A DNA stretch of 58,517 nucleotides from contig JAFWDJ010000001.1 of assembly GCA_017513095.1 (NCBI GenBank), positions 1 to 58,517 of the forward strand, written 5' to 3'. The DNA comes from Clostridia bacterium. GTDB lineage: Bacteria > Bacillota > Clostridia > Oscillospirales > RGIG577. Within the stretch, counting starts at the first letter, position 1, and every line of letters starts with the position of its first letter. The notes under the pieces were generated by a model. That model was not told where the DNA came from. It saw nothing but the letters and a program-made list of their open reading frames with translations, and did no database searches. Of the stretch, positions 746 through 58,517 are shown one piece after another. The position numbers and the translations under genes were made by a program.

Positions 746-3700
746 TTACTTTTTCACATAACGGGATGCGCAAAGAGGCGTCGAGTTTTCTTTATCGAGA
801 AGGAAAATCCGGCAGGAATAGCTTGCGGCGGGAATGTCTGCCGAATAAATGCCGTCATTTCCTTCGGGAATGCCTATATAAATCATTTTACCCTTCTTGT
901 CGTAGGCGGCAACCCACGCCTGCGCGCTGTCGCCCGCGTTCACTGTATGGAAGTTTACGCGGTCCTTTTCAAGCGTCACGTTCGTGATGGCCGCGCCGTC
1001 CATGGGTTCGCGCACGTCGGTGAGAAGCCCCTTCCAGCTGTCGCCGAAGAAACGCCAATCGCCGCGCTGATCCTGATAGAAGAGGGCGTATCTGTCGCTG
1101 TCGTCGCCGGCGATGCTTATAAGCACCTGCTTTATCTGCGGCGAGGTATCGCTTTCGGAAACAAAGGGATCATATACGCTTTGGCGCACCGTAACGGTAA
1201 TGGGCTGCGACGGAGTATAGCCGTTTTGAGGATCGGCGCCGCCAAGGTAGGCGTTTCCTATGTATCTGTATTTATCGTTTTGCATCATACGGTCGCGCAG
1301 AGCCGAAATCCACGGGTTATACTCGGAAAATGCGTAGCTTACGGGATGTCCGCCGCTGTCGGTCGCGCCGGGCTTGGGCGCGGCGGGATTTGTAAGGTAA
1401 TCAAGCATAGCGATGCAGGGCTCTGGGTCTTCGGGGCTCCAGGAGCGCAGCGCGAGGAAATAAAGCGCCATCGTCTTATAAGGGCTGTCAAGGCTGTATT
1501 GAACGATATCCTCGTAGCTTTCGGGTATGGTTGAGAAGGTAAATGTGTGCTCCTCTACGGTCACGTCAATCGGATTGTCGTATTCGTCGACGGCCTTCGC
1601 CGGGACATTTGTTACAGTCTCCGAAGGCTCATTCTGCACGTGCGCGGGCTCGTCGGCGCGGATAACCTCCGGCGGACGAACGACGTCGCCGCTCGGCGTC
1701 TTTACGTCGGTAAGCAGTCCCTTCCAATTATCGCCGAACACGCGCCAATCGCCGCGCTGGTCCTGATAGAACAGGGCGTAACGGTCGTTGTCGGCTCCCG
1801 GTATTGTAATCAGAACCTGATATATCGTCGGATCGGTGTCGTGCAGATCATTTGACCGGTACGGATTATATACGCTTTCTTTTACGGTGACCGTAAGAGG
1901 CATCGAGGGCGTATAATCGTTTGAGGGCATTGCGCCGTCGAGATAGGCGTTTCCTATGTAGCGGTATTTTTCGTTCTGACGCATACGGTCGCGGAGGAAC
2001 TCTATCCAGAACGGATACTCGGAAAACTTTTTGCTTAAATAGTGGCCGGTATTATCCTGCTTTCCGGAGCTTACGTCCGTATTCGTCAGGTAGTCGAGCA
2101 TTTTAAGACAGATTTCCGGATTTTTCGGCGTCCAGGTGCGATATGCCATTATAAGCAGCGCCATGGCCTTGTAGGGGCTGTCAAGCTTGTATTGTATGAT
2201 GTCCTCGTATGTTTCGGGTGCTTTGGTGAATGTAAAGGTGTGCTGCTTTACGGTGGTATCGATAATTATGGTGTTTCCGGCGTCGTCCGTGCCCACAGCT
2301 TTGGCGGGGATATCAAAGATGCTCTCTATAGGCTCCGTCTGGGGATTTGCATACGATTCGGGGCGTTCGGTCTCGGGCGGCATGAGAATGTCCATATCCG
2401 GCTTTTGAACGTCCGTAAGAAGTCCCTTCCAGCTGTCGCCGAAGAAACGCCAGTCGCCGCGCTGATCCCGGTACATAAGAGCGTACCTGTCGTTATCGGC
2501 GCCGTCGATGTGTATAAGAATCTGCTTAAGCTCGGGGCTTGTATCCGTTGCGGCGGTGTATGGGTCATATACGCTTTGGCGAAGCGTGACCGTTATCGGC
2601 TGCGACGGCGTATAGTCGTTTTTGGGAGCGGCGCCGCCAAGATAAGCATTGCCGATATAGCGGTATTTCGTATTCTGAAGCATACGGCCATTAAGAAAAT
2701 CACGCCAGTAGTTGTACTGCGAGAAGGGAACGGCCAGAGAGTGTCCCTCGGAATCGGTCTCGCCGGAGTCGACTCCCGTGCAGGTGAGATAATTAAGCAT
2801 CTCAAGGCAGTCGTCGGGGTTATCCAGCGTCCACGTGCGAAGTGCCATGAAGAAAAGGGCCATCGTTTTATAGGGGCTGTCCAGCCTGTAACGAATGAGC
2901 TCCTCATAGCTTGTCGGTACAGCTGAAAACGTAAAGGTTACTTGCTCGACCGTCGTATCAATAGACACGGGATTTCCGCTTTCATCAACACCGGCGGCTT
3001 TTGCGGGTATCATTACGCGCGTCTCCTGCGGCTCGTCATACGCTTCCGTATGCTGCGTCTCCGGCGGATAAAGCTCGTCGCTCGCGGCGGTTTTCACGTC
3101 GGCCAAAAGATTTTGCCAGCTTGTACGGAAGACCTTCCAGTTTCCGCTGTCATCCTGAAAGAACAGGCAGTAGCGCTCATTGTCGGCGCCGGGGAAGTAG
3201 ATAAGCACCTGCTTTTGCTCGGGCGCCCATTCGTTCGCCTGCGCATAAGGGTCGTAGACGCTCTGACGCAGCGTTATTGTTATCGGCTCGGAGGGCGTAT
3301 AGTCGTTTTCGGGAGCGGCTCCGCCGAGATACGCATTGCCTATATAGCGGTACTTATTATTTTGCATCATGCGGTCATGCAGGGCGGATATCCAGGGATT
3401 GTACTTTGAAAACGGACAATATTCGTCGTTTAAGGTCGCGCCCGTATCTGTAAGATAATCGAGCATTTCGAGGCATACGGACTCATCCTGCGGGTCCCAA
3501 GTTCGGTAGGCCAGGATGAGAAGCGCCATTGCCTTATACGGGCTGTCAAGCTTGTATTGCGACAGCTCCTGCGCGTTTTGCGGAACGGTGGAGAAGGTGA
3601 AGGTGTACTGCTCGACCGTCGTATCGATTACGTGACCTTGCTCGTCAAGCGCCTGCGCCGACACTTCGGTCACGGTAAGCTGCGGTTCTGTTTGCTGCTG

Positions 3701-3796
3701 TGCCGAAGGGGAGGCAAGCGCAAAAGAAGGCAGAAACAGAAAAACGAGCATAACACACAGGACAAAGCTTATAATCCGCAAAGTGATTCTTTTCAC
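746..3796 (-). CDS. secreted protein with four tandem ~230-residue modules
   Basis: A 1016-residue exported protein. Residues 1-28 form a signal peptide (KR, hydrophobic core, ALA/S). Four copies of one module follow, each beginning near TFTFS, then LDSPYKAMAL, a Leu/Tyr-rich helix with AYRTW, a CLEMLDYLT segment, DRMMQNxKYRYIGNAYLGGA, DYTPSxPITVTLRQSVYDPY and ending in GDWRFFGDSWKGLLTDV. A different ~80-residue C-terminal domain closes the protein. Proline/acidic linkers separate the modules. The module recalls the family I know as DUF6935, but that name is from memory. The start is GTG behind a run of seven G. No membrane anchor or sorting signal is present, so it is probably released or held by non-covalent contacts. 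Function unknown. Confidence 0.85.
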   Translation of the reverse strand: MKRITLRIISFVLCVMLVFLFLPSFALASPSAQQQTEPQLTVTEVSAQALDEQGHVIDTTVEQYTFTFSTVPQNAQELSQYKLDSPYKAMALLILAYRTWDPQDESVCLEMLDYLTDTGATLNDEYCPFSKYNPWISALHDRMMQNNKYRYIGNAYLGGAAPENDYTPSEPITITLRQSVYDPYAQANEWAPEQKQVLIYFPGADNERYCLFFQDDSGNWKVFRTSWQNLLADVKTAASDELYPPETQHTEAYDEPQETRVMIPAKAAGVDESGNPVSIDTTVEQVTFTFSAVPTSYEELIRYRLDSPYKTMALFFMALRTWTLDNPDDCLEMLNYLTCTGVDSGETDSEGHSLAVPFSQYNYWRDFLNGRMLQNTKYRYIGNAYLGGAAPKNDYTPSQPITVTLRQSVYDPYTAATDTSPELKQILIHIDGADNDRYALMYRDQRGDWRFFGDSWKGLLTDVQKPDMDILMPPETERPESYANPQTEPIESIFDIPAKAVGTDDAGNTIIIDTTVKQHTFTFTKAPETYEDIIQYKLDSPYKAMALLIMAYRTWTPKNPEICLKMLDYLTNTDVSSGKQDNTGHYLSKKFSEYPFWIEFLRDRMRQNEKYRYIGNAYLDGAMPSNDYTPSMPLTVTVKESVYNPYRSNDLHDTDPTIYQVLITIPGADNDRYALFYQDQRGDWRVFGDNWKGLLTDVKTPSGDVVRPPEVIRADEPAHVQNEPSETVTNVPAKAVDEYDNPIDVTVEEHTFTFSTIPESYEDIVQYSLDSPYKTMALYFLALRSWSPEDPEPCIAMLDYLTNPAAPKPGATDSGGHPVSYAFSEYNPWISALRDRMMQNDKYRYIGNAYLGGADPQNGYTPSQPITVTVRQSVYDPFVSESDTSPQIKQVLISIAGDDSDRYALFYQDQRGDWRFFGDSWKGLLTDVREPMDGAAITNVTLEKDRVNFHTVNAGDSAQAWVAAYDKKGKMIYIGIPEGNDGIYSADIPAASYSCRIFLLDKENSTPLCASRYVKK
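1020..3640 (-). repeat. four diverged ~690-bp coding repeats
   Basis: The segment encoding TTVEQ-TFTFS recurs near 3615, 2945, 2245 and 1555, a period of about 670-700 bp, and the module end GLLTDV recurs near 3100, 2410, 1700 and 1015. The copies differ at many codons, so this is an old internal duplication under protein-level constraint. Confidence 0.85.
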
Positions 3797-45946: not shown

Positions 45947-45979
45947 AAAACGGCGCGAACCTCGGGTTCGCGCCGTTTT
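45947..45979. terminator. bidirectional terminator between pseudouridine synthase and pilus operon
   Basis: Perfect 15-bp stem AAAACGGCGCGAACC/GGTTCGCGCCGTTTT with a TCG loop and T runs on both strands. It closes the pilus operon 13 bases after the sortase stop. Confidence 0.95.
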
Positions 45980-45992
45980 GATTATTTATATC

Positions 45993-47720
45993 TTATTGTC
46001 TGCCCGCCGGAGTTTTTTCCTTCTCCGGTGCGTTAATGTCTTTCTCTGTATATTCAAGCTTCTTTCTGTAACGGATAAATATCACGTCTACAAGCCAGCA
46101 GCCTAACAGGAAGAGAATCATGAGGGGCGTCCATTTGTCGATGAGCACCATGGGAAGCCGCATATCCTCAGTGAGGATAAAGGCTATAAGTGCCACAACC
46201 GAAACGACTGCCTCCATTACGAGGCCCGATCTGAACCGCCTTAAGAACTCCTTGACCTGATACATGAGCTTCTCCTGAATTTCGCTCGGCTCTTTCGATT
46301 CGGGAACTATGAGTCTGCGTTCGATAAGCTCGGAGAGCAGGCTGTTGTACTGGTTCATCATCTTGCCGCGCGAGAACTTCGAACGGAGTCTGTGAACCGG
46401 AAGGAACAGATATATCGTAAGGATAAGGCAGATAAGATTTACAAGCGCCCATGCTCTGTCGCCTCGTCCGCCGGCAGGAGTCAGGAATTCGAACGGCTTC
46501 TTCGGATTGGAAGAACCGTCGTCGCCTACGTGCTCGCTTCCGTCGGGTATGTCGTCGATGCCCGAAGTGTCGACCTTGTCTATGTGGCTTCCGCCGGGAG
46601 GCGGAATTTCGCCGCCGCCGGGAGGCGTGTCGCCGTCGTGATCACCGATGATGCCGCCGGGATTCGTACCGCCGCCGGGATTCGTACCGTCATCGGGCTT
46701 GGTGCCATCATCGGGATTTTCGCCATCATCGGGCTTGGTGCCGTCATCGGGCTTGGTGCCGTCATCGGGATTTTCGCCGTCATCGGGTTTCGTGCCGTCG
46801 TCGGGATTTTCGCCGTCGTCGGGCTTCGTGCCGTCATCGGGCTTCGTGCCGTCATCGGGATTTTCGCCATCGTCGGGCTTCGTGCCGTCATCGATATCGT
46901 CGGGCGGATCGTACGGATCAAGGTCTTCCGGAGGAAGCTTTCCTCCCGCTCCGGGATCAGCGGCCGTCATAGGCGTAAGCTTGCCGAAGAGCACGAGTCT
47001 GCCGCTCGTAAAGTAGCTGTCGCAGGTAGACAGTGCGAGTATCTTCTCCGCGGAAGCGGCCGAGACCTCGTCATACTGAATTGCGTGCTTCTGTATGTAT
47101 TCCATCGTTTTGTCCAAATGATGGTTCGCACCGGATATGCTGTATACCGAATCCTCGTAGGCGTCCGTCATAGCGCAGGCGAAAACCTCGAACTCGTATA
47201 TCTGTGTCGGCGTTATGAAAATACCTTCCCTGTGCCTGTCAAAGAACGTCTTCTCAACAAACTTGTCGATGTCGCCGAACATGGCGCCGTTGTCCATATG
47301 GTGACCGTAAAGAAGATTGTACGAGTCTTCAACCTCGCGGTTGTTTTCCGTTGCCATATATATAGCGCCGGAAAGACTGTTTTCTCCGAAAACGTCCTTG
47401 CTTACATATTCCAGATCGTCCTCACCCTGCACAACCGGGTAGTCGATATGCGTATCGTAAACGGTTATCCAGCCGACGACGTCCTCATTTATCGCCATTA
47501 GCTCTTCAAATCCTGGCCCGTTCTCTTCTATAACGGGCCTGTATTGCATAAGGTCCCAGGCGTTTAGCGCCTTCTGCTCCTCATAAAAGGAGTAGTACAG
47601 CGAATATCCGCTGTATATGATTACGGAACCGGCGACAAGATAGGACAAAACCGTTACGGCTGTGGTTCCGGCATGGGCAAGAGCCGTAAGAATGGCCAAA
47701 ACTTGTGCTTTTGTTATCAT
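45993..47720 (-). CDS. class B pilus sortase with repeat linker and C-terminal membrane module
   Basis: A 575-residue transpeptidase. An N-terminal membrane segment (residues ~18-40) is followed by the sortase barrel (~75-250): TVYDTHIDYPVVQGEDDLEY, catalytic H140 in YGHHMDNGAMFGDI, C233 in LSTCDSYF and R241. The layout resembles class B sortases such as those of FctA-type pili. Beyond the barrel come ~13 DDGTKP/DDGENP hexapeptides (277-355), a Gly/Pro stretch, then three hydrophobic segments (about 423-442, 499-517, 530-550) around a charged ~55-residue helix-forming part. Class B sortases usually end after the barrel, so this tail is unusual. It should join pilins by their ISPTG signals. 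Last gene of the pilus operon; RBS AGGAGG. Confidence 0.9.
   Translation of the reverse strand: MITKAQVLAILTALAHAGTTAVTVLSYLVAGSVIIYSGYSLYYSFYEEQKALNAWDLMQYRPVIEENGPGFEELMAINEDVVGWITVYDTHIDYPVVQGEDDLEYVSKDVFGENSLSGAIYMATENNREVEDSYNLLYGHHMDNGAMFGDIDKFVEKTFFDRHREGIFITPTQIYEFEVFACAMTDAYEDSVYSISGANHHLDKTMEYIQKHAIQYDEVSAASAEKILALSTCDSYFTSGRLVLFGKLTPMTAADPGAGGKLPPEDLDPYDPPDDIDDGTKPDDGENPDDGTKPDDGTKPDDGENPDDGTKPDDGENPDDGTKPDDGTKPDDGENPDDGTKPDDGTNPGGGTNPGGIIGDHDGDTPPGGGEIPPPGGSHIDKVDTSGIDDIPDGSEHVGDDGSSNPKKPFEFLTPAGGRGDRAWALVNLICLILTIYLFLPVHRLRSKFSRGKMMNQYNSLLSELIERRLIVPESKEPSEIQEKLMYQVKEFLRRFRSGLVMEAVVSVVALIAFILTEDMRLPMVLIDKWTPLMILFLLGCWLVDVIFIRYRKKLEYTEKDINAPEKEKTPAGRQ
46660..46892 (-). repeat. 18-bp tandem coding repeats in the sortase linker
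   Basis: About thirteen units encoding DDG(T/E)(K/N)P in a higher-order pattern of two unit types. Some units are identical at DNA level (gtgccgtcatcgggcttg type), a sign of recent slippage or recombination. They keep the frame and form an acidic rod, probably spanning part of the cell wall. Confidence 0.9.
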
Positions 47721-47732
47721 CGCTCGGCCTCC

Positions 47733-48335
47733 TTAGAGGTTGTTGCGCCGCAGCACGGAAATGACGGTGCCCGCGATCTCGCTTTTCGATACGGGGCCGA
47801 AGAATCGGCTGTCAACTCCGCCCTGGCGGTGATCCGCAAGCACGAAGCATTCGTCCGGGCCTAATTTAAGGGGATACTCGACAAATCCCTCATAGCGCGG
47901 CGTTGATGAGAAAATATTCGACTCAATCATCGTGTTTCCGTTGACTACAAGGTTCTCACCGTCGGTTATTTCAACCGTATCGCCCTCTTTGGCAACTACT
48001 CTGCCTACGTATCTTACGTTGTCCTTCGTGAATACTATGACGTCCTGAGCCCTTACGTCCTTATCGAGTCGATAGAACAGTAAGAGGTCACCACCGTCGA
48101 TGCGGGGATACATATCCCCGCTCGGCATGGTGGCGAATCCTACAATGAAGAAAAACAGGACCCATATCAAAAATATGAAGATAAGCGCGCGAAAACCGAA
48201 TATATGGATGTCGCGCATATTGCGCTCAGCCCGCTTGAGCTGTTTTCTTTTTTTGCGCAGATCATCCGCTCCGGGCTCATTATCAGTATCGGCCTCGTTC
48301 GGACGGTCATTAACTTTTACTTCTTCAGCTTTCAT
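47733..48335 (-). CDS. sipA: SipA-like pilus assembly protein (signal peptidase I fold, catalytic dyad lost)
   Basis: A 200-residue S26-family protein: charged N-terminus, one membrane segment (residues ~47-67) and an outer domain with RYVGRVVAKEGDTVEI and VLADHRQGGVDSRFFGPV, the signal peptidase boxes. Aligned with Bacillus SipS (GDSMYPT and YVKRIIG), the nucleophile Ser is D74 (SGDMYP) and the general-base Lys is G111 (YVGRVV). The same Asp/Gly exchange is what I recall for SipA of Streptococcus pyogenes FCT pili, needed for polymerisation but without peptidase activity. It lies between pilin and sortase with short gaps, as in FCT/PI-2 loci. A nearby S72 could act in an altered geometry, so lack of activity is an inference. 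Confidence 0.88.
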   Translation of the reverse strand: MKAEEVKVNDRPNEADTDNEPGADDLRKKRKQLKRAERNMRDIHIFGFRALIFIFLIWVLFFFIVGFATMPSGDMYPRIDGGDLLLFYRLDKDVRAQDVIVFTKDNVRYVGRVVAKEGDTVEITDGENLVVNGNTMIESNIFSSTPRYEGFVEYPLKLGPDECFVLADHRQGGVDSRFFGPVSKSEIAGTVISVLRRNNL

Positions 48336-48359
48336 AACGCTTCTCCAAAATAGTTGTTT

Positions 48360-49748
48360 TTACTCTTCCTCAACCCTAACGCGGCGGAATCTTCTTGCAC
48401 CGATGATAAGGGCTACAGCTACTCCGAGAGTAAGAAGGTACGGTGCGAAGTAGAGCACAACGCCCGTAGGGGAAATCTCATCAAGGGTGTTGGTAATGTA
48501 GATGGATAACTTGGAATCGCTGAAAGTCTGGTCATCGGTAGCGCTGGAGGTGCCGTTGCTTGCTACAGACTCTTCGGGAAGCAGTTCAACATTGTTAGCG
48601 TCACTGGAATCCGCTAAAGAATTTGCCTGTACCATGTAAGTGTTGGGCGTGTTGTTTGTTTCGGTAAGAGATATGGTGGTATTGGTATCGTCAGCGCCGG
48701 CTTTGATGCCAATGGGAACACCGGTAAAATCAATCGTACCGGAGTCTTTAATCGTTCCGCTTATAGCAGTATTTGTCATTTCAATATAGCTATACTCGGT
48801 ACCGTCAACGGTAGTATTTGTGATATCGTCTGCGGCTATAGTAGCATCGCTCAGATCAACATCAACCTTAATGTTGTCAGTGAGACCCGTTCCCTTTGTA
48901 AAGGTCATGGTAAGCGGGAAGTAATTGGTCTTGTCCGCAATAGCACCTTTAACATCCTTTTCGATATGAAGATTCTGCGTCGTATAAACGTCTACGTTTG
49001 CGGGATCTTCGCCCTGGCTAAGGTCGGAAGTGTTAACAAAACCTGCGGACTTTTTAGCTAAATCCGTAGTTGTGTTATTATAATCGAAATCCTGATCAAA
49101 ATCATCGGATTCGAAAAGAACAAAGCCGTAGATCTCTTTTTCTCCGTCTGCGTCAAAGCGAACGTAAACGTCGAGATATCTCGTGTCGCTATACGTAGCC
49201 GCCTGAGCTACGCCTACCTCTGCCCTCGTTTTTGAAGTGTTTTTTACACTCTCGGTTATCTTATAGCGATAAATGCCTGCTCCGGGGAATTCGGTAGGAT
49301 CGAAGGTGAAGGTTGCGTACTTTATGCAAGCCGTGCCGTCGCCGTCAGCGGTTGCATTCGCGAAATTAGCGTCGGAAAACTCAACATCAACAGATTGAGA
49401 AGATAAAGCAGCATTAACACCTTCCTGAACGGTAGCGGTAATATCATAGGTGTCGCCCAGGTCTCTACCTAATATCGTTGCCGCCGGATGCGCTTCAGTA
49501 AACGTAACCTTTTCAATAGAATAGTTATAGGTGATATTGGGTTCGCGAACATCGGTGTCCTCAGCATTGATAAATACAATCTGCTTTGCGATGCCTATTG
49601 TGGTAATAGCGTTAGTCGTGTCTTCAACGCCGTTGTAATTGTTCCAGGCATCATCAGTGTTAGCGGCTAAACCAATCGCGCCGAAAGCGATGATGAACAG
49701 AACCGAAAGCACCAAAGCAATTAGCCTTTTGGAAAGTTTTGTTTTCAT
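48360..49748 (-). CDS. major pilin, FctA-like, with ISPTG sorting signal
   Basis: A 462-residue surface protein. Signal peptide 1-28. Two immunoglobulin-like domains can be assigned with intramolecular isopeptide triads typical of pilin linkage domains: K55 (IAKQIV), E166 (YRYKITESV), N239 (GFVNT) and K264 (HIEKDVKG), E363 (LTETNN), N420 (YITNTLDE). The C-terminus has the sorting signal ISPTG (425-429), a hydrophobic stretch and RRFRRVR. Thr/Asp/Asn-rich composition. Strong AAAGGAAA-type ribosome site. Its small size next to the giant first gene makes it the probable shaft subunit. Confidence 0.88.
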   Translation of the reverse strand: MKTKLSKRLIALVLSVLFIIAFGAIGLAANTDDAWNNYNGVEDTTNAITTIGIAKQIVFINAEDTDVREPNITYNYSIEKVTFTEAHPAATILGRDLGDTYDITATVQEGVNAALSSQSVDVEFSDANFANATADGDGTACIKYATFTFDPTEFPGAGIYRYKITESVKNTSKTRAEVGVAQAATYSDTRYLDVYVRFDADGEKEIYGFVLFESDDFDQDFDYNNTTTDLAKKSAGFVNTSDLSQGEDPANVDVYTTQNLHIEKDVKGAIADKTNYFPLTMTFTKGTGLTDNIKVDVDLSDATIAADDITNTTVDGTEYSYIEMTNTAISGTIKDSGTIDFTGVPIGIKAGADDTNTTISLTETNNTPNTYMVQANSLADSSDANNVELLPEESVASNGTSSATDDQTFSDSKLSIYITNTLDEISPTGVVLYFAPYLLTLGVAVALIIGARRFRRVRVEEE

Positions 49749-49892
49749 GGTTCGTTTCCTTTCTTTAATAAATTTGCAGTGTTAATACGTTTGCTCCGTT
49801 ACGGAGGTTCCCGGTACTGCGCCGGGTTGGGCGGAGGCTTATCTCGCGCCGGGTAATGCCTTGTAGTTCTTATATGTACTCTCACACGGCGC
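49749..49892 (-). promoter_or_regulatory. structured spacer between surface protein and pilin genes
   Basis: The 144-base gap contains stem-loops CTCCG/CGGAG (49794-49806) and CCCGG/CCGGG (49810-49826) and two ACCCGGCGC direct repeats. None has a T tract. It may be an RNA processing or stabilising site that raises pilin output over the upstream gene; no clear second promoter is visible. Confidence 0.4.
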
Positions 49893-52800
49893 TCACCTCC
49901 TCTGCCTGTGCTTTCTGCGGCGGAGTACCGCAGGCACAAGGCATATAGTTAATATCGCCGCACCGCATATGAACAGAGCCATATACGGTTTGTGATCGAT
50001 GTTGACCCCCGTCGGGGAAATGGGAGCATATGTATTCGTAAACAGGAGGGTAATTTTTTCTACCGTCTGATCGGCTGTAAACTCCCTGGTTCGCGTTTCG
50101 GATGTGGTAGAGCTGCTGCCGATAGTCGTCTTTAGCGTTGTTTTGTAAAACAGCTCGGCAGTTTCGGTTATCGTAAACTTGGTGCCGTAAGGAATCACTA
50201 AATTCCTGGTGACTGTTTTGCCTTTGCCGGGCGACAGCGTGAATGTCGCCTTGCCGTCGGCGTCGGTGACTATATTGTTCGCGCTGTTTGAAGCGTCGGT
50301 GTATATAGCGTATCCGGAAACTGGAGTCGTGCCGTCAATAATCTCGGCGGTAAATGTAAACGTGCCGCCTTTATTTACCGCTTTCTTCTGTACCGGAACC
50401 TCTATGGTCTTTCTCGTATTGGTGAATACTATGGTGCCGTCGGCAGTGACCGATACGGGGCACACGGAGTCTTCAACTGCGCTTCCGCCGTTCACCTGAT
50501 ACGACGTGTCATAAGGGACTGCCGCGTCTTCGGTGACGATAAGTACCGCGTTGAGCGGAACGACGAGCTCCTTGCTTGTGTTATGGTTGAGGGCGAAGCT
50601 CAATACGCCGTTGGTAAAGCCGCCGCCGTTGTATTCCCAGGCTGTAATGCCGTCGGGCCTATACAGCTTCGCGGTAAAGTTGAATTGCGCGGTTCCGTTT
50701 GTATCAGCCGTAGTACCGTTCGCAACTACTTTGCTTACGGTAATGCTGGCCGTTCCGAACGACCTGTTCGGTATCACTATGGTGTAAGACGGAGTTGCTC
50801 CGTTTACGGTCTCGAGTTCTACGCCCGAGGGCGCGGAGTCGATGCTTACGACACCCGTATCGCTTATGGTGAACTTGACGTCGCTTTCAAGCGGCCTGTA
50901 GCCGTCGGGCGTATCTCTCTCGTAGAGGTAATACGTTCCCGCTGACAAAGTGCCGTTTGAAAAGGCTTCGGTTATTTCCGGTAAAGTACCGGCAGCGGTC
51001 GTAACGAGGTCTTCGAATCCGGTTATAGGACGGAAGTCCTTCTGCGGCTGGCCGCCCGAACCCATAACCTGAGCGTACAGCGCAAAGTGAACGCCCGGCA
51101 GCGGGTCGCCGTCCTTCGTATAAGCCGTCTTTTTAATTATGAAGCTGGCCGGCTTGTTTTTAATTGCGATAAGTGCCATTCTGTCGGCCGAGTCGGTATC
51201 GTCGAGCAAATGGTACCCGGAATTATCCGAATCGCCCGTTACGGTGACGGTCGTGCCGCTTCGGGATATAGTAACGGGTGTCGGCATTGCCAGATAACCC
51301 GTGGGCGACTCGATCTCGGTGAGCGTATACGTTTCATTCTCTCTCAGATAAGCGGTTGTGACAAATCCGTCGTCGTCCGAGGTATATGTCGCCGCGCCCG
51401 CGTTGTTGCCGCTTCCGTCAGTCAGCGTAAATACTGCTCCGGCGAGCGGCGAGCCGTCCCAGTCGGTCTTGTAAATGTCTATGCCGGCGCGTTTGTTCGT
51501 CATCTTATCGACGCGCACGTTCGCGCCCGGCAAGATGGCGCCCTTCTGGTAGCTTACCTTATATGTGAAGGTCGAACTTGACGCGTCGCCGTACTGCTTT
51601 CCTGCAAAAGAGTTCGTATCGCCCGGGTCGACGATAGACATGGAGTCGTAATGCGTAACGACGTCGGTGCTGTCGTCGACGGTGGGATTTGTAAGCTTTA
51701 CCTCGCGGACAACGTAATTATCGAAGGATACGCCTCCCAGCGTGTAGAAGAACCAGTAAACCGAATCGTTGTCCGTCGTAAGTCTGCGGACGGTGCCGTC
51801 CTTCAATGTGGTCGCGCCGCCGCTTTGCGTGAATACCGCGAAGTACGCGGGGTCGCGCTGCTCCATATAATCCTTATCGGTCCACACCTTGTTTACACGC
51901 AGGCCCCAGCCCTTTAAGTTGTTTACGGAAATATTGTAAGTCGTGCGCGGAGCTATTGCGTCGGTCGGAGGAGCTTGGTTTGCGGTCTCTACGCCGTCAA
52001 CGACGTATTTCTGCAGCGTATAACCGTCGGGTATCTCGTCGGCGCGTTCCAGGTATTTATACTGCGTGCCCGGCAGCACCTGGCGGATCTCTACGCTGTA
52101 GTCAACGGGTATATCGCCTATTGAACCGTTCTGAGACGTAACGAAGGTCGCGGCTTTCTTCGCGGAGGGCGTAAGGCTTTCGAAGTTCGTGGCGCCGAGA
52201 GAAACGAATTTTCCCGCGGCCTCATTCCATGCACAGTAATGCCCATCCTCGTCAAGCACGTGGTATTTATACATATTTGCCGGCGGCAGATCGTCCGAGT
52301 CTTCGTTCTCCGTGCCGAGGTAGAGACGGAAGCTGAAGGTCGTATCGTTGGCGTCACGGTGAATTGGCGTCGTGCCGTTCTCCTCAAAGAGAAGCTTTTT
52401 AAATCTCAGCGTACTTAGTGACGTCGGGTCTACGTTGTTTACGAAGGTCACGCGGGTACGCGTCAATACCTTGTCGTAATCGATCTTGAAATCCTTTCGT
52501 GACGAGCTCGCGGAAGCCGGAGTTCCGTTTATCGTCAGACCGTTTACCTCAACGGACGTGTATACCTCTGGATCTACGCAGCACTCTTTTATGCTGTAAT
52601 CTATAGCTTCGTTGGGGAAGCTTATCTCGGCCGTCTCCCCCGGCCTCAGTATGTATACGTGCTGATATGTAGTACCGTCCCTGCCGGTAAATCTTTCATG
52701 ATATTTAACGCTGCGGTTGGTATCCTTATATACGACTTTTATGCCGTTCGGGTTGTCGGGAACAAGAAGGTTTTCAACGTCGCTGTCGCTCAGTTTATAG

Positions 52801-55800
52801 TAAATCTGATAAGGATAATCGGCTATGCACGATTCTACGTTGTCTATACCCGCTATCTGCTTGGTAAGCAGTACGTTGCCCGGCTTTACGGAAGCGAGAT
52901 TGAAGCGCATATGAAGGTTGGATGCGCCCGCACCGCGCTCCATATAGAATATCTTCATTGTGTGAGTCGTATATTCTTTGAAGATGGTGCTGCCGTCGTC
53001 AAAATACTGACTCAGGAAAGCTGCGATCTCTGACTCCGACGCAGTGGGATTGCGCTTCAGATAATTCTGCCTGAAGAGCTGGCGTATAGTGAAGTACTTG
53101 CCGTTTACGTATACGTCGCCCGTGCGGTAGTTTACGCTGCCGGCAACGGCACTGTGAATACCTCCGAGGTCGATAAGAAGCTCGCCGTCAACGTAGAGCC
53201 AGAAATCGTCGTCACCGGTGAATTCGTAGATTATATCATGGCCCCAGGCGTCAAGACCGTTCGGAGTCTGCGTGAAGCTTGCTTCTATTTCAACGCCGAA
53301 GTAGTAGTCGGTCTCACCCTCGACAAGGCGAAGCTTTTCGCCCTTTCTCGGGTCGCTGTCTGGAAGCTCGACAACAAGCGCGTCGTAAAGGTTTTCCGGG
53401 TTGAGAGTCGAGTATTCGTCTGACAGCCCATTAAAGGGCAGGAACTGACCGTGCTTCAGAGATTCTCTGTCAAGTGTTCCGCGCGCGGTGGCAAGCTCGT
53501 TATATACGGTAAAGTTCGAAGTGAGGTTTCCGTTTTCATCTCTCAGCGTGGCGAAGTTCTGCGTACTGTCGAACTCGTAGTAACCGCTGGAGTAGTATGT
53601 GTTTTCAATGAACAGATGGTTTACCTCGGTCGCGCCGGCAAACAAAGTACCAAGGGAGGTGCCGGGAGCAGGTTTAGCTTTGGGAAATTGCGTCGTGGGA
53701 TATCCGTCGGCTCCGAGATCTGTCGAAAGCAGGCCCTGTACCAATTTCGTACCTAAACCGCCGCTGTTGTCACCGAGGAAATTGCTTTCATCGAGACGAT
53801 CATCGAAGTTCTTTACCTTCATCGTGATGCCGTACTGGGTATGGTCAATGGTGGATACGGTAGTGGGCTCGTCGACTAATACCGTGGGCTTCATTATCGC
53901 GAAGTAGAACGGTGCGGCATCCTCCATATCGCAGGAGACAATACTTCCGTTCAGCGGCTTAATTCCTGCGTACGAATAATATCCTTTGTCCCATGCAAGG
54001 ATGGACGAATAATAGTAACCGTAGCGGCGGCCGTTTAGGTGTATGCCGAGCGTATTGGGAGACAAAATCTGTCCACTGGCAACCTGCGGGGCCAGGTATT
54101 GGCCCGAATACGTATTTTGCAGCTCGTAATAGTAGTTTGGCGTGCCGTCACCGTAGTGATATTCTGTGAATGCCCATTTCGCCGTATTTACCGTACTGCC
54201 TACCCACTGTATCATGTCGCCGCTTTCGTAGCAGCGTATAAGACTGCCGTCCGAGCTTATGGCGTAGAATTCGTATTTCAGCTTTTGTTCGTTCCATACG
54301 CGCGTATAGATTACGACCTCGGTCTGATCGGGCACCTTGGTAACGTCGGAAATATCGACCTTCTCGGCGCTGTATATGGTGAAGTCCTCGTCATGAAGAA
54401 GCTGTGACTTCGTTACGAGCGTAAGCCACGAATACGCTGCGCCGTCAGTGGAGCTTACGAATCCGTTGACAATATTGCCCGCCATCAGCGTAACGGCGTA
54501 GCCGCCGACGCTGAGCCTGTATTTGCCCTGATATGCACCCGTTCCGCCGTCGACCTGGATAAGCGAATTGATGGGATGGGGCGCGGAGGCCAAAACGAGG
54601 TTCTTTCCATCCAGGGTAAGATACTTGGTCTCGCCGCCTACCTGAGCGGTCACATAATAGTAGTTTTCACCCTGAGTATGGAACGTCCAGTCGGTAAGGT
54701 CCGAATCCTGCGCGACAAGAAGATCGCCCGTGTTGTCAAGCACGTCGGGGCGCACCAGAAGCTCGGAAGCAACGAGACGATTCTGTGTGCCGACCGGCTT
54801 ATCGAGAGCCATAAGGCCGGCAGCCTTTACGCTCTCCTCATGGTAAGCGATGCCGAAGGTCTTGCCGTCAAGTTCATAATACTCATCGGGCACCGAGATC
54901 GAAGACGCGTACGTTATCGTTATCTGGCAGTTCGCGTTGTTGGAGTTATCCGGATAAAAACGCATGCCCTTGCCGCTTCCGGAGTATTGGAACCACTTGT
55001 TCTGGTTCTCAATTTTAATATAGAAGAGATTTGTAGCGGCCTGGCTGATTTCAAACACATTGGCGTTGGCGGAATTAGTGGTAAGACCGGCGTCGTTTGA
55101 GCTTACGTTATAAAGATAATTCTTCGTTCCGCTGAGGTACGTATATATAAGATATTTGTTGGCCGAAACGTCAACGGCCTCAAAATACCAGCGGCTCGCG
55201 TTCATTATATCCGAAGTTTCGGCAAAGCACTTGCCGGTGTTATTAAACGTGTTCGTACAATAGTTGCCGTTGCTGCGCGAGAAGAAAAATCCGTGAGTAT
55301 CGCTGTAATTCTGCTGTAATTCCGCAGGATCATGAACGATCTCTATGTTCTGATTGGTCGGAGGGTCCTTGGCAGCGACGAGCACGTATACGGAGAAGCT
55401 GTCCGTGGTGAACGAAACGATCTCGTCCTCAACGGAGGGCTCCATTGAGTATACGGTAAAGGAAGCGGGACCCTCGGAGGTTTCAAGGACAGCATTAGAG
55501 ACTACTTCGTCGCCGGAGCCGGTTTTGTCGTCGGTTATTGCTATTGAGCCATCGTCGAACGTCGAATCCTTCACGTCGCCTTTTGCGCCGTCGTCGGACT
55601 TGGAATCCTTCGCGCCGCCTTTTGAGCCATCGTCGAACGTCGAATCCTTCACGTCGCCTTTTGCGCCGTCGTCGGACTTAGAATCCTTCGCGCCGCCTTT
55701 TGCGCCGTCGTCGGACTTAGAATCCTTCACGTCGCCTTTTATGCCTGAATCATCGTCCGCTTGTGAGTCGGAGCCGATATCCGTGATGACATCCTCGCCG

Positions 55801-57395
55801 GTAGCGAAGGCCGCCGCGGAATCGGCGTCTGCGGCCGATCTTGTGTCGTCAATATCGTTGTTTTCTTCCTCGTCCCTGACGAAGTGGTAAACGCCGACCT
55901 TTTCGTCTTCGCCAAGCTCAACGTCGAGGAGGCGTATGGATACGTTTACTTCGCCGCTGGGCTCGTAAACTATGCTTTCATCCTTTTCATCTACTATTTT
56001 TATATCGAAGACTTTCGTAAACAGTACGTTTTCCGCATCGAAGCCGGAAGCGGTGATCGATTCGCTTACATACATGTCGTAGTCGATGTCGGCGGGTATG
56101 TACTCCTGTACCCAAAGCATCGTGCCTTCCATGGGTATGCCGGAATCCGCGGTATACGTTACCTCGATTTCGTACGTCTCGCCGTCGCTCGTGGTGATGG
56201 TGCAGTCAAGCGACGAAAGAGTTATTATATATAATGAAAGATTATCCGATTCAAAGGAGATCATACCGTCCTCTGCGGCGGCATCTCTCACCTTCAGGCG
56301 CGTTCCTTTTTCGCTTATACGCCAAACCTCAAGAAGCGCGCCTCTTTCAAGCGCGTCCGCTATGGCTTCGCTCTCGATGTCGATGCGTATAACGTCTTCG
56401 GGCTCGAATTCCTCGCCGTCTGCAAACAGAGCAATATCGTAAGCGCACAGGACGTCGTCTCCGTACAGGGCAAGCTCCTCGTCGCCGAGGACAATCGCCT
56501 GAGCCTCAACGCCGCTCGGAAGAACGCCCGAAAGCGTAACGCAGGTCGTATCGTCGGAAAGCTCTACCTTCTGCTGATGCGGTCCCGGGAAAATCCAGCG
56601 GAACAGCTCCGCAAGAACGGACCTGAAGAAGCCCTTGAGCGTAGTAGTCTCTTCTGAGGACTTTTTATCGTTGTCGGAAATCACCGGAAGATCGTTATCG
56701 GAGGTCAGGACCTTGTTGCCGCTATCGTTTTCTTCGTTATTATTATCTTCTATAATATTATTGTCATTATTATCTTCACCGTTCGGATTTGCTTCTTCAC
56801 CGGACGAGGGGTCGTTTTCGCCTTCGCCGTCTTCGCCTTCGGCGGGATTATTTTGCTGAGCGTCTTCCCCGCTCTCGTTATCGTCGCCGGAGGTCTGATT
56901 TTCTGTCAAGGAGTTATCCTTGTCATTGTTTTCGTCACCTGAATTGTCGCCGTTGTCGCCGGAAGTGTTTTTGTCGGAAGCATCGTTTCCGCCGTCCCCC
57001 GCGTTTTCGGATGAATCTCCGTCGCTTGCGTCACCGCCCGCGTTATCCGAATCATCGGACGCCGCGTTGTCATTGCTGCCCGAGGAGTCGCCAAAATCGC
57101 CGGAATCGCCCGTTTCGGGCGCGCCGGCGGAAGCGGCATTGTCGTTCGTGCCGCTGCTTGTATTATCGCCTGTATCGTTTACGGATGATGAAGCTTCCGA
57201 GGAGGAGCCGCTGTTGTCAGCGCCGCCGCCCGATGAGGAATCGCTGCCTGAAGAGGCATCGGACGATACGTAGGACGATGACCCGGCGTCGGAAGCGTCG
57301 TTGTCGGTTGCAAGGGACGTAAAGGCCGTGCTTGCAGACATGATTATCATAACAAGCGCCAGCAGTAAGCCTAACGTACGGCGTATTTTCCTCAT
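49893..57395 (-). CDS. giant fibro-slime / Cna-B surface protein, likely pilus tip adhesin, ISPTG signal
   Basis: A 2500-residue exported protein. Signal peptide 1-29; Ser/Gly/Asp/Asn-rich low-complexity stalk (~30-245); a beta-rich region (~270-545); an acidic/basic repeat (~550-640, units like DDGAKGGAKDSKS); a Tyr/Trp-rich region with repeated YYY and KYLTLDGK elements, perhaps lectin-like (~685-1170); a fibro-slime domain (~1180-1500) with GDDDFWLYVDGELLIDLGGIHS and HTMKIFYMERGAGASNLHMRF; then about six Cna-B/SpaA-type domains (starts near 1658, 1831, 1968, 2081, 2218, 2331) with KxD/E-type lysines and closing FTN motifs. The C-terminus carries ISPTG (2459-2463), a hydrophobic segment and RRRKHRQRR. 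AGGAGGTG precedes the ATG. First gene of the pilus operon; the shared ISPTG signal with the pilin implies the same sortase. Confidence 0.88.
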   Translation of the reverse strand: MRKIRRTLGLLLALVMIIMSASTAFTSLATDNDASDAGSSSYVSSDASSGSDSSSGGGADNSGSSSEASSSVNDTGDNTSSGTNDNAASAGAPETGDSGDFGDSSGSNDNAASDDSDNAGGDASDGDSSENAGDGGNDASDKNTSGDNGDNSGDENNDKDNSLTENQTSGDDNESGEDAQQNNPAEGEDGEGENDPSSGEEANPNGEDNNDNNIIEDNNNEENDSGNKVLTSDNDLPVISDNDKKSSEETTTLKGFFRSVLAELFRWIFPGPHQQKVELSDDTTCVTLSGVLPSGVEAQAIVLGDEELALYGDDVLCAYDIALFADGEEFEPEDVIRIDIESEAIADALERGALLEVWRISEKGTRLKVRDAAAEDGMISFESDNLSLYIITLSSLDCTITTSDGETYEIEVTYTADSGIPMEGTMLWVQEYIPADIDYDMYVSESITASGFDAENVLFTKVFDIKIVDEKDESIVYEPSGEVNVSIRLLDVELGEDEKVGVYHFVRDEEENNDIDDTRSAADADSAAAFATGEDVITDIGSDSQADDDSGIKGDVKDSKSDDGAKGGAKDSKSDDGAKGDVKDSTFDDGSKGGAKDSKSDDGAKGDVKDSTFDDGSIAITDDKTGSGDEVVSNAVLETSEGPASFTVYSMEPSVEDEIVSFTTDSFSVYVLVAAKDPPTNQNIEIVHDPAELQQNYSDTHGFFFSRSNGNYCTNTFNNTGKCFAETSDIMNASRWYFEAVDVSANKYLIYTYLSGTKNYLYNVSSNDAGLTTNSANANVFEISQAATNLFYIKIENQNKWFQYSGSGKGMRFYPDNSNNANCQITITYASSISVPDEYYELDGKTFGIAYHEESVKAAGLMALDKPVGTQNRLVASELLVRPDVLDNTGDLLVAQDSDLTDWTFHTQGENYYYVTAQVGGETKYLTLDGKNLVLASAPHPINSLIQVDGGTGAYQGKYRLSVGGYAVTLMAGNIVNGFVSSTDGAAYSWLTLVTKSQLLHDEDFTIYSAEKVDISDVTKVPDQTEVVIYTRVWNEQKLKYEFYAISSDGSLIRCYESGDMIQWVGSTVNTAKWAFTEYHYGDGTPNYYYELQNTYSGQYLAPQVASGQILSPNTLGIHLNGRRYGYYYSSILAWDKGYYSYAGIKPLNGSIVSCDMEDAAPFYFAIMKPTVLVDEPTTVSTIDHTQYGITMKVKNFDDRLDESNFLGDNSGGLGTKLVQGLLSTDLGADGYPTTQFPKAKPAPGTSLGTLFAGATEVNHLFIENTYYSSGYYEFDSTQNFATLRDENGNLTSNFTVYNELATARGTLDRESLKHGQFLPFNGLSDEYSTLNPENLYDALVVELPDSDPRKGEKLRLVEGETDYYFGVEIEASFTQTPNGLDAWGHDIIYEFTGDDDFWLYVDGELLIDLGGIHSAVAGSVNYRTGDVYVNGKYFTIRQLFRQNYLKRNPTASESEIAAFLSQYFDDGSTIFKEYTTHTMKIFYMERGAGASNLHMRFNLASVKPGNVLLTKQIAGIDNVESCIADYPYQIYYKLSDSDVENLLVPDNPNGIKVVYKDTNRSVKYHERFTGRDGTTYQHVYILRPGETAEISFPNEAIDYSIKECCVDPEVYTSVEVNGLTINGTPASASSSRKDFKIDYDKVLTRTRVTFVNNVDPTSLSTLRFKKLLFEENGTTPIHRDANDTTFSFRLYLGTENEDSDDLPPANMYKYHVLDEDGHYCAWNEAAGKFVSLGATNFESLTPSAKKAATFVTSQNGSIGDIPVDYSVEIRQVLPGTQYKYLERADEIPDGYTLQKYVVDGVETANQAPPTDAIAPRTTYNISVNNLKGWGLRVNKVWTDKDYMEQRDPAYFAVFTQSGGATTLKDGTVRRLTTDNDSVYWFFYTLGGVSFDNYVVREVKLTNPTVDDSTDVVTHYDSMSIVDPGDTNSFAGKQYGDASSSTFTYKVSYQKGAILPGANVRVDKMTNKRAGIDIYKTDWDGSPLAGAVFTLTDGSGNNAGAATYTSDDDGFVTTAYLRENETYTLTEIESPTGYLAMPTPVTISRSGTTVTVTGDSDNSGYHLLDDTDSADRMALIAIKNKPASFIIKKTAYTKDGDPLPGVHFALYAQVMGSGGQPQKDFRPITGFEDLVTTAAGTLPEITEAFSNGTLSAGTYYLYERDTPDGYRPLESDVKFTISDTGVVSIDSAPSGVELETVNGATPSYTIVIPNRSFGTASITVSKVVANGTTADTNGTAQFNFTAKLYRPDGITAWEYNGGGFTNGVLSFALNHNTSKELVVPLNAVLIVTEDAAVPYDTSYQVNGGSAVEDSVCPVSVTADGTIVFTNTRKTIEVPVQKKAVNKGGTFTFTAEIIDGTTPVSGYAIYTDASNSANNIVTDADGKATFTLSPGKGKTVTRNLVIPYGTKFTITETAELFYKTTLKTTIGSSSTTSETRTREFTADQTVEKITLLFTNTYAPISPTGVNIDHKPYMALFICGAAILTICLVPAVLRRRKHRQRR

Positions 57396-57481: not shown

Positions 57482-57510
57482 ATTTTATCACTAACAATCT
57501 CAAATTGCAA
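57482..57510 (-). promoter_or_regulatory. Sigma-A promoter of the pilus operon
   Basis: Minus strand TTGCAA, exactly 17 bases, TAAAAT with GTGA just before the -10. The predicted start near 57475 gives an ~80-base leader that holds two direct repeats TTTATGAC ten bases apart (57453-57470). Confidence 0.75.
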
Positions 57511-57569: not shown

Positions 57570-57624
57570 TGGTGCCGGTAGCCGGGGTCGAACCGGCACG
57601 GTATCGCTACCACCGGATTTTGAG
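57570..57624 (-). other. tRNA-Leu (CAA) 3' fragment: probable attachment site
   Basis: Minus strand reads from an anticodon loop CTCAAAA (anticodon CAA) through the 3' anticodon strand TCCGG, the Leu-type variable arm (TGGTAGCGATACC), T arm GCCGGTTCGACCCCGGC, and acceptor strand to CCA. The matching 5' half (D arm, CCGGA, acceptor 5' strand) is absent: bases beyond 57624 do not pair. Such 3' remnants mark one end of elements that integrate into tRNA genes. By orientation the chromosome lies to the left and the element to the right; the intact tRNA-Leu should stand at the element's other end, outside the window. Confidence 0.88.
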
Positions 57625-57918
57625 GGAGTAACGTCTTTTGGAAGTTAAGGGAAGATAAAGGAAACGAAAAACGGCTCAGGAGGTCGAAAAGAGGATCGAA
57701 AATCCAGTCATATCAACAAGAATCGGCTCTTGCCTTCATTTTTGAATCCGGTGCGGAATTTTTCCGCGCAAAAAGCCGAAAAACCGGGATTTGGCGATTA
57801 TTTGGAGGTCGATTGGAGGTCGGTCGGAGGTCGATTCTGCCAAAAACGCCCCAGCAGAACTACATAGCATGCGCGTTCATCTGCCATCGACAATCTATTT
57901 TTTCAGGAGATGAACACC
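57625..57918. other. non-coding left end of the integrated element
   Basis: About 290 bases without a gene between the tRNA-Leu remnant and the first excisionase-like gene. It holds four GGAGGTCG repeats, three of them in a phased array, and purine-rich sequence. This is where arm-type integrase or excisionase sites are expected. Confidence 0.65.
57804..57836 (+). repeat. three 11-bp direct repeats GGAGGTCGNTN
   Basis: GGAGGTCGATT, GGAGGTCGGTC and GGAGGTCGATT begin at 57804, 57815 and 57826, exactly one helical turn apart; a lone GGAGGTCG lies at 57679. Phased repeats beside an attachment site suggest binding sites for an excisionase or integrase arm domain. Confidence 0.75.
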
Positions 57919-58185
57919 ATGACAAAACGAGAATTAAAAAAGCTGTTCCGGGATTACCCGGACCTTGTCAGGCTGCCGGAGCTGTGCGCCATGATGGGCG
58001 GAATCGGAGAATCGACCGCCCGAAAGCTGCTGCGCGAGGGTCACATCCGATCCATCATGGTCCGCTCGACCTATTACATCCCCAAGACCTGCATCATTGA
58101 TTACCTGCTCAGCAGTCATTACAAAAGATACAGGCAGAAGCTGAAGCATGTGATTCCGGAAGGTTCGAAGGGGGTGTCGAAATGA
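57919..58185 (+). CDS. excisionase-like helix-turn-helix protein 1
   Basis: An 88-residue DNA-binding protein: charged N-terminus, then a MerR/Xis-like winged helix (LPELCAMMGGIGESTARKLLREGHIRSIMVRSTYYIPK) and a short basic tail. AGGAG nine bases upstream supports the second ATG; the first ATG touches the ribosome site. It overlaps the next gene by four bases (ATGA). Its place beside an attachment site argues for a directionality factor or early regulator of the element. Confidence 0.8.
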   Translation: MTKRELKKLFRDYPDLVRLPELCAMMGGIGESTARKLLREGHIRSIMVRSTYYIPKTCIIDYLLSSHYKRYRQKLKHVIPEGSKGVSK

Positions 58186-58517
58186 AGCGCAAAACTCTCC
58201 CAAAAGAACCAGAGTGCAAGGACGGATGGGATCAGATCCTTGAAGCGTTGAGCAAGGAGTGGAAGATCTCTCAAAAGGACGCCTTCCATTATGCGCTTCG
58301 GGACTTCCCGGAAGTGATGAGCATTGAGCAGGTCGGTAAGGCATTGCAGGTGAGCACAAAAACCGTATATAAGTATATCAACGACGGTCAGCTTGAATGC
58401 CTGAAGGTCGGACGAGCCTATCGTGTTCCGAAGGTTTGCCTTTTTGCCTACCTGTTCAAAAACGCTCAGGGTTCGAAAAAGACAGGTACTGATCCGAGGA
58501 GGAAGAAATCGAAATGA
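58182..58517 (+). CDS. excisionase-like helix-turn-helix protein 2
   Basis: A 111-residue protein with the excisionase-family HTH (MSIEQVGKALQVSTKTVYKYINDGQLECLKVGRAYRVPKVCLFAYL) after an N-terminal helical part, and a basic tail (KKTGTDPRRKKSK). The stop codon is the last three bases of the window, so the gene is complete. Its HTH resembles that of the previous gene, hinting at an old duplication. The integrase is expected further right. Confidence 0.82.
   Translation: MKRKTLPKEPECKDGWDQILEALSKEWKISQKDAFHYALRDFPEVMSIEQVGKALQVSTKTVYKYINDGQLECLKVGRAYRVPKVCLFAYLFKNAQGSKKTGTDPRRKKSK

What the first reader, a model, noticed from the sequence alone, without database searches (positions are those of the whole stretch)
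45993..57395. Complete sortase-assembled pilus operon of FCT/PI-2 type in a spore-forming Clostridium-like genome
Four adjacent genes on one strand, with one promoter and one strong terminator: a giant surface protein, an FctA-like pilin, a SipA-like protein and a class B sortase. Both surface proteins carry the same ISPTG signal, not LPXTG. The gene set equals that of streptococcal FCT and PI-2 pili, but the tip protein and sortase are built differently, so this may be a distinct gut-type pilus.
Basis: partly seen in the sequence, partly recalled or inferred. Interest (0 to 1): 0.75.

Follow-up and report, generated by a model that had tools for sequence, protein, structure and literature searches.

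The report
Gut-bacterial pilus operon with membrane-fused sortase
Four neighbouring genes in a gut-type Clostridia genome very probably build a hair-like adhesive fibre of the kind known from streptococci, but in a variant lineage whose assembly enzyme carries an extra membrane domain and whose tip protein is predicted to carry three sugar-binding-type folds.

Summary
45993-57395 holds four minus-strand genes: a 2500-aa surface protein, a 462-aa pilin, a 200-aa SipA-like protein and a 575-aa class B sortase. Both surface proteins end in ISPTGV, the only two such sorting signals in the genome.

The pilus reading is well supported. The pilin model matches the S. pyogenes major pilin (Z 19.6) and PitB (Z 15.7). 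The SipA lacks the Ser-Lys dyad. The sortase's best solved relative is the pilus sortase Spy0129. An invariant lysine (K233) aligns within one residue of Spy0128's linking Lys161.

About 30 relatives, many from ruminant guts, define a distinct lineage. Its sortase carries a C-terminal three-helix FILTED membrane domain (29 of 30; clade support 94/85). The window and most complete relatives have pilin-SipA-sortase order. No FctB-like base pilin was found. The window genome has no class A sortase. The window's tip head models as three beta-trefoils. At the same site a congener has 55 bp instead of 11.65 kb, so the operon is patchy.

SipA/class-B-sortase pili are already known from streptococci and C. 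perfringens, so this is a new variant of a known kind. Assembly, adhesion and anchoring are inferred, not shown.

The parts
49893..57395 (-). Tip/adhesin surface protein, 2500 aa, ISPTG sorting signal at its C-terminus
   Evidence: head region 44-49% identical to tip proteins near or beside six other SipA-type pilus loci
53889..55325 (-). Three tandem predicted beta-trefoil domains (tip aa about 691-831, 836-997, 1007-1169), lectin-like head
   Evidence: AlphaFold2 model, pLDDT about 75 here; Foldseek and VIA-align matches to trefoil proteins, Z up to 14.6, rmsd 2.4-3.0 A per domain; very weak RicinB_lectin_2 match
53037..53306 (-). Fibro-slime / PA14-like domain of the tip protein (aa 1364-1453)
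   Evidence: TIGR02148 48 bits, cut-off 45; PF07691
51231..51482 (-). SpaA prealbumin-like (CnaB) stalk domain of the tip protein, best of two matches (aa 1972-2055)
   Evidence: PF17802 97 bits
50005..50021 (-). ISPTGV sorting signal of the tip protein
48360..49748 (-). Major (shaft) pilin, FctA/PitB fold, two Ig-like domains; predicted acceptor lysine K233
48460..48476 (-). ISPTGV sorting signal of the major pilin
47733..48335 (-). SipA-like protein: signal-peptidase fold with Ser to Asp (D74) and Lys to Gly (G111)
   Evidence: PF10502; PDB 4n31 SipA E 1.6e-18
45993..47720 (-). Class B sortase fused to a C-terminal FILTED membrane domain, 575 aa
   Evidence: TIGR03064 and NF052597 both over cut-off; 3psq E 2.5e-45
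46065..46451 (-). FILTED domain (aa 424-552), three predicted membrane helices at the C-terminus of the sortase
   Evidence: hydropathy
46658..46893 (-). 18-bp tandem repeat, about 13 copies, encoding the PDDGTKPDDGEN linker between sortase and FILTED
   Evidence: sequence
45947..45979 (.). Perfect 15-bp terminator-like hairpin between convergent rluA and the pilus operon
57482..57510 (-). Promoter-like sequence upstream of the operon (consensus match only)

Best explanation
This is a SipA-dependent, class-B-sortase pilus operon of the FctA/PitB kind, in a variant lineage found mainly in rumen and gut Clostridia. Proposed working: the tip protein and the 462-aa pilin are secreted and held in the membrane by their ISPTG signals. 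The class B sortase cuts ISPT|G and joins the threonine to lysine K233 of the next pilin, adding subunits under the lectin-like tip. The catalytically dead signal-peptidase homologue SipA acts as assembly factor. The sortase is held in the membrane at both ends: an N-terminal helix, and the three-helix FILTED domain joined through a repeat linker. With no FctB-like base pilin and no class A sortase, the shaft is attached either by the same sortase or by staying membrane-bound; this last step is the least certain. Shown here: gene content, homology, predicted fold, conservation of the lysine, loss of the SipA dyad, FILTED fusion. Inferred: polymerisation, the K233-T428 bond, tip placement, topology, adhesion, anchoring.
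For: Pilin: profile matches to GAS T-antigen pilins (E 5.6e-23 to 1.5e-44), Spy0128 (E 6.4e-17) and PitB (E 5.6e-10 to 2e-9). AlphaFold2 model (pLDDT 78) aligns with 3gle at Z 19.6 over 273 residues (rmsd 6.1 A) and with PitB 4s3l at Z 15.7. K233 is invariant in 21 of 21 pilins and aligns within one residue of Spy0128 Lys161. SipA: best hit 4n31 SipA, E 1.6e-18; Ser to Asp and Lys to Gly in the window; none of the 59 family members that cover the Lys position keeps a Lys. Sortase: best solved hit 3psq Spy0129, E 2.5e-45; His-His, LSTC and Arg present. Lineage: 30-row clade, 29 with FILTED, 94/85; the FILTED domain occurs just once in the genome in 18 of 21 relatives. Only two ISPTGV sorting signals in the genome, both here. 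Sortase and SipA are experimentally required for such pili in S. pyogenes, and FctA is their shaft (PMC3019223, PMC4049620).
Against: No expression, polymer or microscopy data exist. Pilin sequence identity to streptococcal pilins is only 15-24% in the structural alignments. The first-domain isopeptide triad is uncertain (E166 is Glu in 12 of 21 and Asp in 8; D253 would replace the usual Asn). The tip model is of moderate confidence (mean pLDDT 59.9 overall). Tip genes are not next to the pilin gene in all relatives. How the fibre is anchored is unknown.
Confidence: 0.85

Rival explanations
1. Wall-anchored display without polymerisation: the class B sortase attaches the two ISPTG proteins singly to peptidoglycan, like S. 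aureus or B. anthracis SrtB, and no fibre is made.
For: Most studied class B sortases anchor proteins to the wall (PMC3019223); no polymer has been shown here.
Against: Pilin fold and invariant acceptor-position lysine, a dead SipA and the Spy0129-like sortase separated from SrtB of B. anthracis and L. monocytogenes at 96/84. The signal is an xxPTG type, not NPQTN.
Confidence: 0.08
2. An FCT-3-like pilus whose base pilin and wall attachment are supplied from elsewhere in the genome, for example the LPQTG protein and class C sortase on contig C26; the FILTED tail is then only an extra membrane anchor. (This shares the pilus reading with the best explanation and differs in the anchoring step.)
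For: Class C sortase beside an LPQTG protein on C26; FCT pili use FctB and SrtA at the base (PMC7900414).
Against: No class A sortase was found, and the C26 sortase is class C. No FctB-like gene was seen beside the lineage's sortases. One relative (L087, G447) has no other sortase detected at all, although its completeness is unknown.
Confidence: 0.3
3. The operon is a decaying or silent acquired island.
For: Absent at the same site in a congener.
Against: All four frames are intact and the catalytic residues, signals and K233 are kept.
Confidence: 0.06

Closest known systems
Streptococcus pyogenes FCT-2/FCT-3 pilus (Cpa, SipA, FctA, class B SrtC, FctB)
   Same: Class B pilus sortase (Spy0129), SipA with Asp/Gly in place of Ser/Lys, two-domain FctA-fold pilin, xxPTG signals, acceptor lysine in the same place
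   Different: No FctB, no SrtA in the genome, sipA after the pilin gene, sortase with FILTED membrane tail, tip with three predicted beta-trefoils and a fibro-slime/PA14-like domain instead of Cpa's architecture
Streptococcus pneumoniae/oralis PI-2 pilus (PitA, SipA, PitB, SrtG1, SrtG2)
   Same: Second surface protein, SipA, PitB-fold shaft pilin and sortase, no base pilin
   Different: One sortase only, gene order, FILTED fusion, tip architecture (PitA is annotated as a von Willebrand factor A protein)
Clostridium perfringens VR-10B pilus (CnaA, FimA, FimB, signal peptidase, class B sortase; PMC8088525)
   Same: Class-B-sortase pilus with a signal-peptidase gene in a Clostridia member, shown by electron microscopy to form fibres
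   Different: Has a putative base pilin FimB; the FILTED tail and SipA residues were not compared here because that locus was not fetched
SipA-pilin-sortase operons of Anaerococcus, Enterococcus timonensis and other Clostridia in this scan (L114, L117, L121, L122, L125, L071)
   Same: Large surface protein, SipA-like protein, shaft pilin, class B sortase
   Different: SipA before the pilin gene, sortase without FILTED, in several a small extra protein with a sorting-signal-like end follows the sortase

Membership tests
SipA-dependent class-B-sortase pili (FctA/PitB type) | Class B sortase related to pilus sortase Spy0129, catalytic His/Cys/Arg kept | tested here: met
SipA-dependent class-B-sortase pili (FctA/PitB type) | SipA: signal-peptidase fold without the Ser-Lys dyad | tested here: met
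   compare PMC4049620
SipA-dependent class-B-sortase pili (FctA/PitB type) | Two-domain FctA/PitB-fold shaft pilin | tested here: met
SipA-dependent class-B-sortase pili (FctA/PitB type) | xxPTG-type sorting signal on shaft and tip proteins | tested here: met
   ISPTG on both; [IV]SPTG in 17 of 21 pilins
SipA-dependent class-B-sortase pili (FctA/PitB type) | Acceptor lysine at the Lys161 position of Spy0128 | tested here: met
   K233 invariant, aligned within one residue; the bond itself not tested
SipA-dependent class-B-sortase pili (FctA/PitB type) | Internal Lys-Asn isopeptide bonds | tested here: inconclusive
   Domain 2: K264 19/21, E363 21/21, N420 20/21. Domain 1: K55 20/21, E166 12/21, D253 19/21. 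No coordinates at hand for geometry
SipA-dependent class-B-sortase pili (FctA/PitB type) | Covalent pilin polymers on the cell | not testable with these tools
   needs the organism or a heterologous host
S. pyogenes FCT-2/3/4 locus in the strict sense | Base pilin FctB and order cpa-sipA-fctA-srtC-fctB | tested here: not met
   Four genes only, sipA after the pilin gene, rluA follows
Wall-anchoring SrtB (S. aureus, B. anthracis type) | NPQTN-type substrate signal | tested here: not met
   ISPTG; sortase outside the B. anthracis/L. monocytogenes group

The most novel reading that the evidence does not exclude
In this lineage the pilus sortase is also the pilus base: the FILTED membrane domain replaces base pilin and housekeeping sortase, so that fibres are built and held at the membrane by one doubly anchored enzyme.
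Probability: 0.15. Interest if true: 0.65.

Novelty: new variant of a known kind. Interest (0 to 1): 0.42.

Why it matters
SipA-dependent class-B-sortase pili are best known from streptococcal pathogens, and why they use this sortase and a dead signal peptidase is an open question (PMC7900414). A large, diverse set from uncultured gut Clostridia gives the comparative material to answer it: which residues of pilin, SipA and sortase stay together, and what a membrane-fused sortase does when base pilin and housekeeping sortase are missing. The predicted trefoil tip also suggests sugar binding, perhaps to plant fibre or mucin, as an adhesion route in the rumen.

Tried and rejected
Single-protein PDB search with the pilin found nothing; the profile of 21 pilins did. 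Pfam and NCBIfam give only sub-threshold matches to the pilin. An active signal peptidase was considered for SipA and rejected on the missing dyad. A thioester adhesin like Cpa was considered for the tip; no such family matched and the head modelled as beta-trefoils, but absence of a thioester domain elsewhere in the 2500 aa is not shown. Foldseek matches of the trefoils to botulinum HA33, fascin and ryanodine receptor are a shared fold only and are not read as function. Rfam found no group I intron or other RNA to explain the tRNA 3' fragment upstream. Paper searches for FILTED, and for rumen or gut Clostridia pili of this type, gave no description of this variant; the library lacks most subscription journals. 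PDB 4y4q could not be identified further.

Full report
What is there. Window 45993-57395 holds four minus-strand genes: a 2500-aa surface protein, a 462-aa pilin, a 200-aa SipA-like protein and a 575-aa class B sortase, with gaps of 144, 24 and 12 bp. Family searches give Fibro_Slime and SpaA for the first, only sub-threshold matches for the second, Peptidase_S26 for the third, and class B sortase plus FILTED for the fourth. Both surface proteins end in ISPTGV; a genome-wide pattern search finds no other sorting signal of this form. A perfect 15-bp hairpin separates the operon from convergent rluA.

Sortase. The best solved relative is 3psq, the S. pyogenes pilus sortase Spy0129 (E 2.5e-45), ahead of the wall-anchoring SrtB enzymes. 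The catalytic His, Cys and Arg are present. In a tree of 64 sortase domains the FILTED-bearing sortases form one group of 30 rows, 29 with FILTED, supported 94/85. The exception, L099, keeps the sortase domain but has other sequence in place of FILTED. All SipA-linked sortases but one long-branched row of unsure place (L126) lie away from the B. anthracis and L. monocytogenes SrtB pair, which is held in a 96/84 group with two other sortases. Spy0129 lacks a C-terminal membrane anchor (PMC3019223), so the FILTED tail is a real difference. By hydropathy the window's sortase has an N-terminal helix and three C-terminal helices. The linker varies from about 24 to 344 residues across the family by a crude count, a few of the larger values being inflated by partial sortase matches. 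In 18 of 21 genomes checked FILTED occurs just once; one (G454, L099) has none and two (G445, G459) have more.

SipA. The best PDB match is SipA itself (4n31, E 1.6e-18). At the signal-peptidase Ser and Lys positions the window has Asp and Gly, as in S. pyogenes (PMC4049620). Among 60 aligned family members none has Lys at the second position (one lacks that stretch); the FILTED-lineage members all have Asp at the first.

Pilin. A profile of 21 pilins matches GAS T-antigen pilins, Spy0128 and PitB. The AlphaFold2 model (mean pLDDT 78) aligns with Spy0128 at Z 19.6 over 273 residues, rmsd 6.1 A, and with PitB at Z 15.7, rmsd 10.8 A; the large rmsd presumably reflects the arrangement of the two domains. 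K233 is invariant (21 of 21) and lies within one residue of Lys161 in the profile alignment, on the low-confidence loop before the last strand of domain 1. K264, E363 and N420 fit an isopeptide triad in domain 2. In domain 1, K55, E166 and D253 are candidates; D253 stands 11 residues before K264, as Asn168 stands before Lys179 in Spy0128. These residue assignments are my inference.

Tip. Residues 690-1560 are 44-49% identical to proteins at six other loci. The model, of moderate confidence, shows three successive beta-trefoils; single trefoils match solved trefoil proteins at Z 13.7-14.6, rmsd 2.4-3.0 A. A fibro-slime/PA14-like domain and SpaA domains follow. A sugar-binding adhesin is a reasonable guess, not a result.

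Lineage and setting. One scan of 84,980 species genomes with two SipA peptide patterns gave 50 loci, a lower bound. Those of the FILTED lineage come largely from ruminant-gut assemblies by their titles. In the window and in most relatives with a complete locus the order is pilin-SipA-sortase; a Ruminococcus group has SipA-sortase first with tip or pilin after. No FctB-like gene was found beside these sortases by the screen used. The window genome (97.7% complete) has two sortases in all, this one and a class C enzyme on contig C26.

Island. In the same-genus genome G001 the orthologous rluA (84% identical) lies 55 bp from a tRNA-Leu 3' fragment that in the window lies 11.65 kb away, with the pilus operon between. 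No SipA orthologue was found in G001 or G002; their hits are at the level of ordinary signal peptidases. The operon is thus an acquired or lost block at this site.

Comparison with what is known. The kind is known: S. pyogenes FCT-2/3/4, pneumococcal PI-2 (five genes, no base pilin; PMC3086225) and, in Clostridia, the C. [quoted passage not shown] What appears new is the variant: FILTED-fused sortase, changed gene order, absence of base pilin and class A sortase, and trefoil tip. In E. faecalis, pili without SrtA stay in the membrane (PMC11326707), which makes membrane attachment a fair possibility here. I found no paper describing the variant, in a library that is far from complete.

Limits. 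Everything about assembly, cross-links, topology, attachment and adhesion is inference. The genome is a draft in 45 contigs. Tree bootstraps had not fully settled.

Noticed in passing
window 57570-57624 (minus strand): A 3' fragment of a tRNA-Leu gene (anticodon loop to CCA) with a terminator after it, not called by ARAGORN. It is conserved but for one base in G001, beside the same kind of HTH genes, and may be an integration-site remnant. No second copy was found in the genome with up to 2 mismatches, and Rfam shows no intron.
   Followed up: partly
window 57910-58185 and 58182-58517 (plus strand): Two adjacent small HTH_17 genes, excisionase-like, at the contig end next to the tRNA fragment; a similar pair (read as one frame) lies at the same place in G001 (L150 2083-2673).
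   Followed up: partly
L001 (G000 contig C26, 501-875 and flank): The only other sortase of the genome, class C, next to a protein with an LPQTG sorting signal cut off by the end of the fetched stretch.
   Followed up: partly
L099 10599-12449: A sortase inside the FILTED clade whose C-terminus has a proline/threonine-rich linker and other domains in place of FILTED.
   Followed up: no
L102 8564-20420: Two SipA-pilus gene sets side by side, one with a FILTED sortase and one without, followed by a trefoil-type tip protein.
   Followed up: no
Linkers of short-linker FILTED sortases, e.g. L088 10525-11712: A recurrent GH motif (such as AVGH, ATGH) just before the FILTED domain, absent from the window's long linker.
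   Followed up: no
window 55544-55740: A 39/78-bp tandem repeat in the tip gene, encoding KDSKSDDGAKGG-like repeats before the trefoil head.
   Followed up: no
window 746-3796 (minus strand): 1016-aa ORF with four matches to DUF6935, family of unknown function.
   Followed up: no
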